A stretch of 64,000 bases of DNA, from the NCBI GenBank assembly GCA_003056245.1, contig MVDH01000003.1, positions 1,715,240 through 1,779,239 of the forward strand, written 5' to 3'. Shown here in pieces: positions 38,314 through 41,788 of the stretch. The stretch comes from Cellvibrio sp. 79. GTDB lineage: Bacteria > Pseudomonadota > Gammaproteobacteria > Pseudomonadales > Cellvibrionaceae. The number at the start of each line of letters is the position of its first letter. Position 1 is the first letter of the stretch. A program made the translations under genes and the position numbers. Below the pieces are notes generated by a model that had not been told where the DNA came from, searched no databases, and worked only from the letters and a program-made list of their open reading frames with translations.

Positions 38314-39558
38314 TTACACGACTACACCTGCAATTGGCCCTGCTGTGCTATAGGCGGGAATTTTTCCGTAAAGGCCCACAGCTTGCGCCACCGTATCCAG
38401 CACCTGGGTATGTAATGGCGCGGTAACGACTTGTCCCCGACGAATTGAACTGCCGCCCCCGGCGAACATAAAGGGCGCGTTGTAGCCGGAATTTTCGTTG
38501 GTGTTACCCATGTTGGTCACTTGCACAACCAATGTTGAATCCAGTAGCGGTGCGCCGTTGATATCGGTCGTTGTTTTTAGTTGCTGGATCAAATAAGTAA
38601 GCCGCTGGCTAAAGTAAGCGCGGTAAGCAATATATTCGCGCATGGTGCCGAAGGCGTTTGCCGCTGCGGCGTAAGTGAAATTAAAACCGGGTACGATAAA
38701 ATCTTCCTGATCACTTCCCATTAGCAAAGTCACTACGCGCGTTAAACCGCATTTGATGGCGGTTACGGCATTGCCGGTTTGCAACTCCCACAAACGAGTA
38801 AAGTGTTGCCCGTCATTAGGGTTAAGGCTTTCAGCGGGCCAGGCTTGTTGCTGTAAATCGCACCCGGGAGCATAACCACCCGCAGGGATCTCTGCTTGCA
38901 ATTGGGTTATTGCATCCTGGTTCGATTGCAGGCGCACGCTGGCAAAACTACCCAGCTGTTGCTGCAGTTGTTGCACGGCTTTTAAATTAATTTCCAACTG
39001 CTTATGTTGTTGTTGCAGTGCAGGATTATTTGATGCTTGCACATTGCGTAGAACTTCAAAGACTTGCGCCGGGTCTTTAATGACCGGTGTTCTGGTCCAA
39101 TTATTCACCGCGGAAATAGAAGTGTCGGCCGATACAACACCCAGTTGAATCGATGAAAAGGGGGTATTGCTTCCGAGCACATCGCCCAGTGCCAGATCGA
39201 TAGTTTTAGGCGCTTTGGTTAAACCGCCCAAGGCGTTTTGTGGAAGACCATGACCTGCAAAACCGTCCATGTCCGTCCGCGAAAAAAATACACATTCCTG
39301 CTTCACCGGTTCCAGCGGCGCAGAACTTGGCCCTAATTCCAATGTTGCTGTTGGTGTAAAGGTATTGGGTGGTGCACCCCCGGGAATAAAAACAAAAATA
39401 ACATTTTTTACTGATGTTGCCGCACTCACTGCACTGCTCAAACCAGCGCCTGCGCTTAATAAGCCGGCATTTATCAAGGGGGCAGAAGCAGCTCCACCGG
39501 CCATCATTTTTAATAATTGACGACGATTATTTTTTTCAAATTTTTCTTGGGTTTTCAT
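38314..39558 (-). CDS. Tat-exported DUF1552-family protein
   Basis: A 414-residue protein with a twin-arginine signal (RRQLLKMMAGG, Arg12-Arg13, hydrophobic Ala-rich core to about residue 46), so it is probably folded, perhaps with cofactor, before export. The mature part has VIFVFIPGGAPPN, CVFFSRTDMDGFAGHG, LLMGSDQEDFIVPG and TLVVQVTNMGNT, resembling the DUF1552/DUF1501 sulfatase-like proteins that accompany DUF1592 proteins in Planctomycetes and other bacteria. AAGGAAGG precedes the ATG. It lies 40 bases downstream of the CBM2-DUF1592 gene, almost certainly cotranscribed. Enzymatic activity is not known. Confidence 0.8.
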   Translation of the reverse strand: MKTQEKFEKNNRRQLLKMMAGGAASAPLINAGLLSAGAGLSSAVSAATSVKNVIFVFIPGGAPPNTFTPTATLELGPSSAPLEPVKQECVFFSRTDMDGFAGHGLPQNALGGLTKAPKTIDLALGDVLGSNTPFSSIQLGVVSADTSISAVNNWTRTPVIKDPAQVFEVLRNVQASNNPALQQQHKQLEINLKAVQQLQQQLGSFASVRLQSNQDAITQLQAEIPAGGYAPGCDLQQQAWPAESLNPNDGQHFTRLWELQTGNAVTAIKCGLTRVVTLLMGSDQEDFIVPGFNFTYAAAANAFGTMREYIAYRAYFSQRLTYLIQQLKTTTDINGAPLLDSTLVVQVTNMGNTNENSGYNAPFMFAGGGSSIRRGQVVTAPLHTQVLDTVAQAVGLYGKIPAYSTAGPIAGVVV

Positions 39559-39598
39559 AATTAAAACCTTCCTTAAGTCACAAATGTGAATGTGAAAA

Positions 39599-41788
39599 TT
39601 ATTGGCTGCGATCTTTGCGATAACGTGCGGCGGATAAGCTGCCGATGCGTTTCAGCATGGCGCGCGCGCTCATGCCATTGCTGGTCATCGCATAATCGAG
39701 TCGATCTTTTTCACAGGCATAATCCGCTTGTTCCGCGGCAGACAAGGTCACTGCACCGGCTTTGGCTGGGTCAAATGTTTTTGTTCCGGTACCAAAGGCC
39801 GCGCGGAAATTGTGTTCTACAAAGCAATAGCGAACTGCATCCAATGGTGCGAGTTTTTGCGCGAGGTCTTCAGCATTCGTAAAGGTGATGGTGGTGCCAT
39901 CGGAAACGCTAGTGATGCCGGTAAATACGCCAGCGGAATTGATCGGGTTGTTGTATTGATCCTGCGTGCGTTTGCGGCTGCCTGCATCCAGGTTTTGATA
40001 GGCGTAGCCCACTTGCCAGAATGGATTAGCGCGCAGGTTTTGTGCGTCGAGCGTGGCGGGGCCGTAAGCATCCTGACAGAGCAGGCGATTGCGAATTGCC
40101 AGCGCGACATTCGCGGGGGCAGGCTCCGTCAATGAACTTTTGCTGGCAACAAATGCACCGCTGGTTAATAAACCACCCTGGCGTAGATAACTCGGGAAAT
40201 TGGTTTTAGCGAATTTATCCTGCGTCACCGTAACGTTGCCCAAGCCATAATAATTAATCAGGGTTTCGTTCACTATGCCGTAATTATTTACCAGCAACTT
40301 GCTGAATGGTCCCGCTTCGTCCAACACAATATGATTGAAATATCCTTGCAGTTCCTCACGCATGGATTTATCAACCGTTGTGTTAAATCCAAACAGCGAA
40401 ACCGGATATAAACCGGGCCCATTGGTCTCTGTACCTAACCATTGTTCTGCGAATTTACCCAGATGATTCCGCGTGCTGGTTTTATTCAACAGGCGATCTA
40501 CCTGCTTTTCAATTTGCGCATCACTGGCAAGCGTCCCATTTTTTGCGGCGTCCAGTAATTCGGCGTCGGGCGTGCTACCGGTATAGGTAAATGCCAGGAA
40601 CGACGCAAGCTCATACGGTGTTAATACATATGCGTCGTTGTCGATAGTCTGTGAGGGCAACGAGGCAGCATTGTTCCCAGCACGAATGTCGTTTACCGCT
40701 ATGCCCGTTTCCTGGCGATATAAAAACTGCGGTGATGTCAGTGCTGTGCCCAGGGCCACGCCTAATGCAGCGGTTATTTGTTCGCTGGTGTTCGCACTGG
40801 CAAACAATTCACGGTATTGCTGGATTTCCAGATCGGTTGCAGGCCGACGGAAAATACGTGTTAGGCTTTGGGTGGTAAATTGGATTGCACATTGTTCGGC
40901 AGCTAAACCGGAGCAATTGAGCAATGTGCTGAAATTGTTTGTTGCGGCTTTATTGACGACATTGTTTGCTAACTTGCTCAAACCACCCAGCACAAATTTG
41001 TCAACAGTTTCTTGCGTATTGTTAGCGAACCCGTTGATGCGCGAGTCTGCCAATAACAAATCCACACTGCGTGCAGGCAAATCGGTTTCTATATTTACAC
41101 CGATTAAATCACGAATACTGTTAACGTATTCTTCGCGCGTGAGCACGCGCAATAAACGCGGGCCATAGGTCAAATTGTTGCCATTACAATTTGCCAGGAC
41201 AGGCGTTGATGACGAACTGGATGAACTGCTTGATGAGCTCTTTGAGCTAAATGAAATCAGGCTGCTGCTTGATGAGCGGATTGAGCTGCTCGATGAAATA
41301 ATTGAGCTTGATGATGACAACACCGAACTGGAGGAGCTGATAATACTGCTCGAACTTTTGCTACTGGAACTCTTGCTGCTGGAAACACTGGAGGATATTT
41401 TTCCAACACACTTCATGCCATCCAAATAAAATTCCACCGGTTTTACCAGCGTGCTTCCGCTTGGGTAGCCAATGTTAAATCCGAAATTTATTGTTTGATT
41501 GGTATTGATGGCGCCATTCCAGCCGGCATTTTTTACACGAACTGCTTGACCTGTCTGGCCATAAGTACCATTCCACAATTGGGAAATTTTTTCCGCATTG
41601 GAAAAGTTCCAGGCTAATTCCCACGTGGTTTTTGGTGCGCCGAGATTGGTGATGTCAACACTCAATGTTGCACCACTGCCCCAGTTACTATTAATTGTGT
41701 ATTTCACATCGCATTGCGCCTGCACATTGATGGTGTAAGTCATCAATATGCCTGCTGCGGATAAAAGGGATACGCTTTTTAACTTCAC
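39599..41788 (-). CDS. CBM2 - polySer linker - DUF1587/1592/1588/1585 protein
   Basis: A 729-residue secreted protein starting at GTG (AAGGAG upstream). Signal peptide 1-24; residues 26-127 are a CBM2 cellulose-binding module with flanking Cys and Trp-rich strands (TTWELAWNF, NAGWNGAIN, NFGFNIGYP). A linker of runs of Ser (about 131-196) follows. Then come DUF1587 (LTREEYVNSIRDLIGVNIET), DUF1592, DUF1588 (YLRQGGLLTSGAFVASKS, RLLCQDAYG) and DUF1585 (EHNFRAAFGTGT) in family order. No CxxCH heme motif is present. Fusion of this Planctomycete-type module to CBM2 points to action on cellulose or plant cell wall; reaction unknown. Upstream of the DUF1552 gene. Confidence 0.85.
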   Translation of the reverse strand: MKLKSVSLLSAAGILMTYTINVQAQCDVKYTINSNWGSGATLSVDITNLGAPKTTWELAWNFSNAEKISQLWNGTYGQTGQAVRVKNAGWNGAINTNQTINFGFNIGYPSGSTLVKPVEFYLDGMKCVGKISSSVSSSKSSSSKSSSSIISSSSSVLSSSSSIISSSSSIRSSSSSLISFSSKSSSSSSSSSSSTPVLANCNGNNLTYGPRLLRVLTREEYVNSIRDLIGVNIETDLPARSVDLLLADSRINGFANNTQETVDKFVLGGLSKLANNVVNKAATNNFSTLLNCSGLAAEQCAIQFTTQSLTRIFRRPATDLEIQQYRELFASANTSEQITAALGVALGTALTSPQFLYRQETGIAVNDIRAGNNAASLPSQTIDNDAYVLTPYELASFLAFTYTGSTPDAELLDAAKNGTLASDAQIEKQVDRLLNKTSTRNHLGKFAEQWLGTETNGPGLYPVSLFGFNTTVDKSMREELQGYFNHIVLDEAGPFSKLLVNNYGIVNETLINYYGLGNVTVTQDKFAKTNFPSYLRQGGLLTSGAFVASKSSLTEPAPANVALAIRNRLLCQDAYGPATLDAQNLRANPFWQVGYAYQNLDAGSRKRTQDQYNNPINSAGVFTGITSVSDGTTITFTNAEDLAQKLAPLDAVRYCFVEHNFRAAFGTGTKTFDPAKAGAVTLSAAEQADYACEKDRLDYAMTSNGMSARAMLKRIGSLSAARYRKDRSQ

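What the first reader, a model, noticed from the sequence alone, without database searches (positions are those of the whole stretch)
38314..41788. Cellulose-targeted Planctomycete-type pair: CBM2-DUF1587/1592/1588/1585 plus Tat-exported DUF1552
The DUF1592/DUF1552 pair is common in Planctomycetes without known chemistry. Here it is fused to a CBM2 module through a polyserine linker, which directs it to cellulose or plant cell wall, and the partner uses the Tat path, hinting at a folded or cofactor-bearing protein. No CxxCH heme is present. This may be an unrecognised cell-wall-active (possibly redox or ester/sulfate-directed) system working with the LPMO and pectate lyase.
Basis: partly seen in the sequence, partly recalled or inferred. 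Interest (0 to 1): 0.75.

Follow-up and report, generated by a model that had tools for sequence, protein, structure and literature searches.

The report
Cellulose-bound pair without redox sites
A Cellvibrio-like bacterium keeps, under purifying selection, a two-gene relative of the cellulose-linked redox protein Cbp2D and its usual neighbour in which the heme motif of one protein and the predicted metal-binding residues of the other are both absent, so the pair is predicted to sit on cellulose and likely works by binding rather than by redox chemistry.

Summary
The two genes are real and placed as described. P0001 (39599-41788, minus) is CBM2, polyserine, then DUF1587/DUF1595/DUF1592; DUF1588 is only a sub-threshold remnant and DUF1585 is not detected. 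P0002 (38314-39558, minus) is a DUF1552 protein with an RR export signal. CBM fusion to this module is not new: Cbp2D of Cellvibrio japonicus has it (PMC8981238), and the window's own genome holds seven further CxxCH-bearing copies, each followed by a DUF1552 gene. What is unusual is what this copy lacks: the X158 and X183 domains, and the heme segment of the X132 module (absent in 21 of 21 clade members, present in 59 of 60 other relatives compared). The partner, predicted to have the alkaline-phosphatase fold, has A/G/S, N and N where the heme-type set has His in 34 of 34 (18 of 18 clade members), and Asn for Asp (17 of 18). dN/dS is about 0.06-0.15, and the three CBM2 Trp are kept. I read it as one old event that turned a cellulose-surface redox pair into a non-redox, probably non-catalytic, cellulose-bound pair. 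I found nothing that ties it to the window's LPMO or pectate lyase. Function is untested.

The parts
39599..41788 (-). P0001: CBM2 - polySer - X132-like scaffold (DUF1587/1595/1592), 729 aa, GTG start
41717..41788 (-). Sec-type signal peptide (by eye, residues 1-24)
   Evidence: sequence; similar in relatives
41408..41713 (-). CBM2, residues 26-127; Trp 36, 72 and 90 align with Trp of the 1exg cellulose-binding domain
41204..41395 (-). polyserine linker (residues about 132-195)
   Evidence: sequence
40943..41149 (-). PSD3/DUF1587, residues 214-282
40709..40891 (-). PSD5/DUF1595, residues 300-360
40241..40624 (-). PSD4/DUF1592, residues 389-516
39992..40078 (-). shortened segment where relatives carry CxxCH (28 residues here; 50-71 in 59 CxxCH-bearing relatives)
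38314..39558 (-). P0002: DUF1552 (HXXSHH) protein, 414 aa, predicted AlkP fold
39421..39558 (-). predicted Tat signal region (Arg 12-13 invariant in 38 aligned)
38656..38670 (-). residues 297-301: the HxxxH of relatives replaced by AxxxN
38491..38514 (-). residues 349-356: the DMGxxxxH of relatives replaced by NMGxxxxN

Best explanation
This is a member of the Cbp2D-DUF1552 pair family with no CxxCH heme motif and with four conserved His/Asp of the partner exchanged, kept under purifying selection, and it likely works as a non-catalytic, cellulose-anchored binding or scaffold complex. Shown by sequence and calculation: the missing domains, the shortened heme segment, the concerted residue exchange, the retained CBM2 Trp triad and low dN/dS. 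Inferred: (a) Sec export of P0001 and Tat export of P0002, then secretion to the surface or medium; (b) CBM2 holds P0001 on cellulose; (c) the X132 shell binds P0002 as a fixed partner, as the recurrent gene pairing suggests; (d) in relatives the X132 heme and the predicted His/His/Asp/His metal site of DUF1552 form one functional unit, which is why both vanished together; (e) in this clade that pocket became an Asn/Ala-lined site that binds a ligand, for example a glycan end or a paralogous redox partner, instead of metal.
For: Own genome: 7 other DUF1592-type genes, all with CxxCH in the X132 part and all followed by DUF1552. The one such copy that I compared matches solved X158 (2x34, 2x32) and Cbp2D X183 (7b21) domains, which P0001 does not. 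Heme segment: 21 of 21 clade proteins (window included, near-copies not removed) have 28-30 residues and no CxxCH; 59 of 60 others have CxxCH (87 rows given, 6 dropped for lack of the anchor; the exception, P0117, has no residues in the segment). DUF1552: His 297, 301 and 356 are His in 34 of 34 non-redundant heme-type relatives but A/G/S, N and N in 18 of 18 of this clade; Asp 349 is D in 32 of 34 but N in 17 of 18 (the partly changed P0027 and P0040-P0043 were in neither set). Genus loci: 4 of 30 (window included) lack both CxxCH and the three His, 25 of 30 keep both (5 of these have Cys for the Asp), 1 (L044) has the His but no readable partner. 24 of 24 further family loci keep both. The clade is one side of a branch (99/100) in a tree of 80. 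dN/dS for the least saturated pair: 0.11-0.15 (P0001) and 0.06-0.12 (P0002). CBM2 Trp 36/72/90 in 16 of 16 clade members compared.
Against: The joint loss is one evolutionary event, so coupling of the two sites rests on one instance plus joint retention elsewhere. Distant relatives show partial changes in the DUF1552 site (P0027, P0040, P0041, P0042, P0043), and their partners could not be read. No gene fusion of the two families appeared among the hits, nor at the one locus fetched for it. Nothing was tested at the bench; binding between P0001 and P0002 is inferred.
Confidence: 0.6

Rival explanations
1. The pair is still a redox component: it borrows electrons from a heme-bearing Cbp2D paralogue or binds another cofactor, and supports an LPMO or a similar enzyme on cellulose.
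For: All 4 genomes with this clade also hold at least one further DUF1552 match; Cbp2D and Cbp2E mutants grow more poorly on filter paper (PMC12542752, passages) and the Cbp2D X183 domain can reduce LPMOs, slowly (PMC8981238, abstract and passages).
Against: No X158, X183 or CxxCH in P0001; the would-be metal ligands of P0002 are exchanged. 12 of the 17 genus genomes without this clade also have a DUF1552 match, so co-occurrence is weak evidence. T. turnerae X183 domains did not drive its LPMO (PMC10916295, passages).
Confidence: 0.15
2. P0002 is still a hydrolase of the alkaline-phosphatase/sulfatase superfamily that removes ester or sulfate groups from plant wall polymers at the cellulose surface.
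Against: The site's three His and one Asp are replaced in this clade. The Asp that follows the first strand in known AlkP hydrolases (recalled) is Gly in this clade (residue 60, 18 of 18), although 14 of 34 heme-type relatives have Gly there too and 16 of 34 have Asp.
Confidence: 0.1
3. The pair is a decaying duplicate with no function.
For: Many domains and residues of the family are lost; the clade was found in only 4 of 144 genomes of the family, and P0001 at E 1e-60 only in the own genome among 293 sampled genomes of the order.
Against: Both ORFs intact in 4 of 4 genomes; dN/dS well below 1; the exchanged residues are themselves fixed; in 3 of 4 copies an ORF of 354-356 aa lies next to P0002 on the opposite strand (Pfam polysaccharide deacetylase in the window, not scanned in the others).
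Confidence: 0.05

Closest known systems
Cbp2D of Cellvibrio japonicus (CBM2, X158, FN3, X183, DUF1587, X132)
   Same: CBM2 joined by serine-rich linkers to the DUF1587/1595/1592 module; a DUF1552 gene follows the Cbp2D-like genes of this genome; a record named 'Putative cbp2D' (P0096) has the same Pfam set.
   Different: P0001 has no X158, no X183 and no CxxCH heme segment in X132; 729 aa against 1,122 aa (PMC12542752, passage).
Planctomycete-type PSCyt3/PSD3-5 protein plus DUF1552 neighbour
   Same: Same gene order as in 64 of 80 loci, mostly labelled Gemmatimonadota or Acidobacteriota, by a strict motif test.
   Different: Those keep HxxSHH (79 of 80; the other is cut off by a contig end) and, where found, a PSCyt3-type CxxCH; the window pair has neither.
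Alkaline phosphatase superfamily (sulfatases, NPPs, YejM)
   Same: Predicted fold of P0002.
   Different: The conserved His/Asp set of DUF1552 is exchanged. Whether that set equals AlkP metal ligands is inferred, not measured.

Membership tests
Cbp2D-type cellulose redox protein | CBM2 module | tested here: met
   Trp triad
Cbp2D-type cellulose redox protein | DUF1587/1595/1592 (X132-type) module | tested here: met
   that X132 equals this module is inferred from the PMC8981238 Fig. 1A legend, P0096 and the CxxCH position
Cbp2D-type cellulose redox protein | X158 (YceI-like, quinone-binding) domain | tested here: not met
   present in paralogues
Cbp2D-type cellulose redox protein | CxxCH hemes (X183 and X132) | tested here: not met
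DUF1552 / HXXSHH (PF07586) | profile match over cut-off | tested here: met
   89.1 bits against a cut-off of 30
DUF1552 / HXXSHH (PF07586) | the His motif that names the family | tested here: not met
   the exact HxxSHH is also absent from all 7 paralogues, which keep a HxxxH or shifted form
Alkaline phosphatase superfamily | fold | tested here: met
   (predicted model, pLDDT 81)
Alkaline phosphatase superfamily | two-metal site and nucleophile | tested here: inconclusive
   candidate ligands exchanged, but no coordinates to superpose
LPMO electron donor | redox cofactor able to reduce LPMO copper | not testable with these tools
   no recognised cofactor motif in P0001

The most novel reading that the evidence does not exclude
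The heme of the X132 module and the His/His/Asp/His site of DUF1552 together form a single two-protein active centre, so that one cannot be kept without the other; in one Cellvibrio clade the whole centre was switched off at once (heme segment cut out, ligands changed to an Asn/Ala set that then stayed fixed) and the empty shell was turned into a cellulose-surface receptor or regulator, the first known pseudo-Cbp2D.
Probability: 0.3. Interest if true: 0.72.

Novelty: new variant of a known kind. Interest (0 to 1): 0.52.

Why it matters
What Cbp2D and its X132 module do is an open question in bacterial cellulose breakdown. The DUF1552 partner does not appear under that name in the three Cbp2D/X183 papers consulted here: the two full-text searches that include DUF1552 do not list PMC8981238, PMC12542752 or PMC10916295. 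A natural relative that keeps the cellulose binder, the scaffold and the partner but has no heme motif and no metal-ligand set is a ready-made control. Comparing it with a heme-bearing pair would show whether the X132-DUF1552 unit is a redox enzyme, a hydrolase or a binding machine. It also links the Planctomycete domains of unknown function to the Cbp2D problem.
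Full report
OBSERVATION. The window lies in a 5.7 Mb genome of 13 contigs. Its nearest named relatives at this locus are Cellvibrio. Two minus-strand ORFs, 39599-41788 (729 aa, GTG start) and 38314-39558 (414 aa), are 40 bp apart, each with a good ribosome-binding site by eye. Pfam gives CBM2, DUF1587, DUF1595 and DUF1592 in the first (P0001) and DUF1552 in the second (P0002). DUF1588 is only a sub-threshold half match and DUF1585 is not seen. There is no CxxCH. The second protein begins with a twin-Arg motif that is invariant in the 38 proteins aligned.

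THE FAMILY IN THE SAME GENOME. The genome has 7 DUF1587 matches and 8 DUF1552 matches at the search threshold, the window's own included. Reading the loci gives 7 further DUF1592-type genes, each followed at once by a DUF1552 gene; the one on contig C4 was not among the DUF1587 matches and is recognised by alignment. Of the four copies that I scanned with Pfam, three have CBM2, YceI (X158) and DUF1587/1595/1592/1588; the fourth (2192 aa) carries CBM26 and a sugar-dehydrogenase domain instead. The one copy compared with solved structures matches X158 and Cbp2D X183. All 7 have two or more CxxCH, one of them in the DUF1588 part. A record named 'Putative cbp2D' has the same Pfam series (P0096). 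So the DUF1587-1588 series is very likely the X132 part of Cbp2D-type proteins, in line with the Fig. 1A legend of PMC8981238, which names DUF1587 beside the X domains (passages).

WHAT IS DIFFERENT. P0001 lacks X158 and X183. In the X132 part, the stretch that holds CxxCH is shortened: 28-30 residues and no CxxCH in 21 of 21 clade members (P0044-P0064, the window protein included, near-copies not removed), against 50-71 residues with CxxCH in 59 of 60 other relatives. That call was given 87 rows: 80 of the 97 hits plus the 7 paralogues; P0065 (the own C11b again) and P0125-P0140 (mostly cellulases, four of them DUF1592 proteins) were not given. Six rows were dropped for lack of an anchor motif, and the one exception, P0117, has no residues in the segment. 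P0002 and its clade (24 of 24 readable proteins of 61-97% identity) lack three His. In non-redundant sets, position 297 is His in 34 of 34 heme-type relatives and Ala 13, Gly 4, Ser 1 in this clade; 301 and 356 are His in 34 of 34 and Asn in 18 of 18; 349 is Asp in 32 of 34 and Asn in 17 of 18 (18 of 25 and 34 of 41 rows kept at a 90% identity limit). P0027 and P0040-P0043, which show partial changes, were in neither set. His 103 (17 of 18) and His 383 (18 of 18) are kept. The site was thus exchanged as a set and the new letters stayed fixed, which is not how a dead gene drifts. For scale, a third of the sites in this clade are at least 95% conserved, so the fixation alone is not remarkable; the switch followed by fixation is.

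DISTRIBUTION. In the genus, 16 of 21 genomes have a DUF1552 match to P0002; this clade is in 4 (72-100% identity, window included). In the three others, the upstream gene is again a CBM2 protein without CxxCH. Of 30 genus loci fetched (33 matches), 4 lack both heme motif and His set, 25 keep both and 1 (L044) keeps the His but has no readable partner; 5 of the 25 have Cys in place of the Asp. 24 of 24 further loci fetched for the family keep both; lower-ranking matches were not read. In the family scan, 60 of 144 genomes have a match and this clade stays confined to the 4 genomes. Among 293 sampled genomes of the order, P0001 is matched at E 1e-60 only in the own genome. A tree of 80 DUF1552 proteins puts the clade on one side of a branch (support 99/100) next to heme-type lineages; the root drawn is the midpoint; P0003, P0025 and P0030 were left out of it, and 10 of the 30 genus loci were used. 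The nearest row, P0027 (51% identity), has lost HxxxH and Asp but keeps the last His; its partner is not known. P0040-P0043 also show partial changes. In 80 loci, mostly Gemmatimonadota and Acidobacteriota with some Gammaproteobacteria and others, found with one canonical protein, 79 keep HxxSHH and 64 have a PSCyt3-type CxxCH gene directly upstream by a strict motif test; 9 have the motif elsewhere in the locus, and of the 7 without it 6 are at contig ends and 1 (L162) has a CxxCH by eye.

SELECTION. Codon comparison of four orthologous pairs gives dN/dS of 0.06-0.15 for both genes where it could be computed, but dS is high or saturated in most pairs. The usable pair is window against G016: P0001 0.11 (NG86) and 0.15 (YN00), P0002 0.06 and 0.12. 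The CBM2 keeps Trp 36, 72 and 90, aligned with Trp of the solved 1exg domain, in 16 of 16 clade members compared; the six paralogues aligned have Tyr at the third place. That these Trp form the cellulose face is recalled from the CBM2a literature.

FOLDS. P0002 is modelled with pLDDT 81 and matches the alkaline-phosphatase superfamily. The DMG motif follows directly after a strand (342-347) in the model, where AlkP enzymes place a metal-binding Asp (recalled), so a metal role of the lost residues is likely but not measured. The X132 part (residues 196-729) is modelled with pLDDT 89 and has no clear PDB match.

MECHANISM. In the heme-bearing relatives, a cellulose-binding quinone/cytochrome protein is encoded beside an AlkP-fold partner. 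Mutants of cbp2D and cbp2E in C. japonicus grow worse on filter paper (PMC12542752, passages) and the X183 domain can reduce LPMOs slowly (PMC8981238, abstract and passages), while T. turnerae X183 domains did not (PMC10916295, passages). The window pair has kept the binder, the scaffold and the partner and shed every reactive centre recognised in the relatives. The simplest reading is a non-catalytic cellulose-anchored complex that binds a ligand or a paralogue. The joint loss suggests that heme and DUF1552 site work as one unit, but it is one event.

PRIOR REPORTS. PMC5615132 (passages) notes CBM domains in PSCyt genes of Verrucomicrobia and conserved neighbours of unknown function. PMC6004670 (Table 1 passages) lists CBM2 proteins whose best hit is WP_007644728 ('DUF1592 domain-containing' in one row): one among proteins unique to the straw-bound fraction and one found in both fractions, the latter beside a YceI protein on the same transcript; I infer a Cbp2D-type protein, unchecked. 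Searches for DUF1552/DUF1592 and for DUF1587/1588/1585/1595/HXXSHH list no paper whose title or shown abstract concerns a heme-free version; subscription papers are not in that library, and I read none of the listed papers in full.

VERDICT. A new, conserved variant of a known kind; ordinary in being a CBM2-DUF1592 fusion, unusual in the coordinated loss of both reactive centres. Interest 0.52.

Noticed in passing
L020:550-7128 (G000:C8): 2192-aa protein with three CBM26, a glucose/sorbosone dehydrogenase domain, cytochrome domains (four CxxCH) and DUF1587/1595/1592/1588/1585, followed by its own DUF1552 gene: a starch-directed dehydrogenase-cytochrome-X132 fusion.
   Followed up: partly
L016:9773-12637 (G000:C11): CBM2-GH5 cellulase with a C-terminal YceI/X158 domain (954 aa), directly upstream of a Cbp2D-like gene, where the C1 locus has a CBM2-YceI (Cbp2E-like) gene.
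   Followed up: no
window:39602-41203: The DUF1587/1595/1592 module gives a confident model (pTM 0.91) with no clear match among solved structures.
   Followed up: partly
window:33355-37125: 1256-aa ORF next to a topoisomerase subunit gene with no Pfam or NCBIfam match; a 1249-aa ORF lies at the corresponding place in G016.
   Followed up: no
L021 and L018 (G000:C4 and C7): Contigs of only 7.3 and 6.8 kb each hold a Cbp2D-like gene plus DUF1552; their signal regions are nearly identical, so repeats may have broken the assembly there.
   Followed up: no
P0027, P0040, P0041, P0042, P0043: Distant DUF1552 proteins with partial changes in the His/Asp site; their partner genes could test whether heme and site are lost together.
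   Followed up: partly
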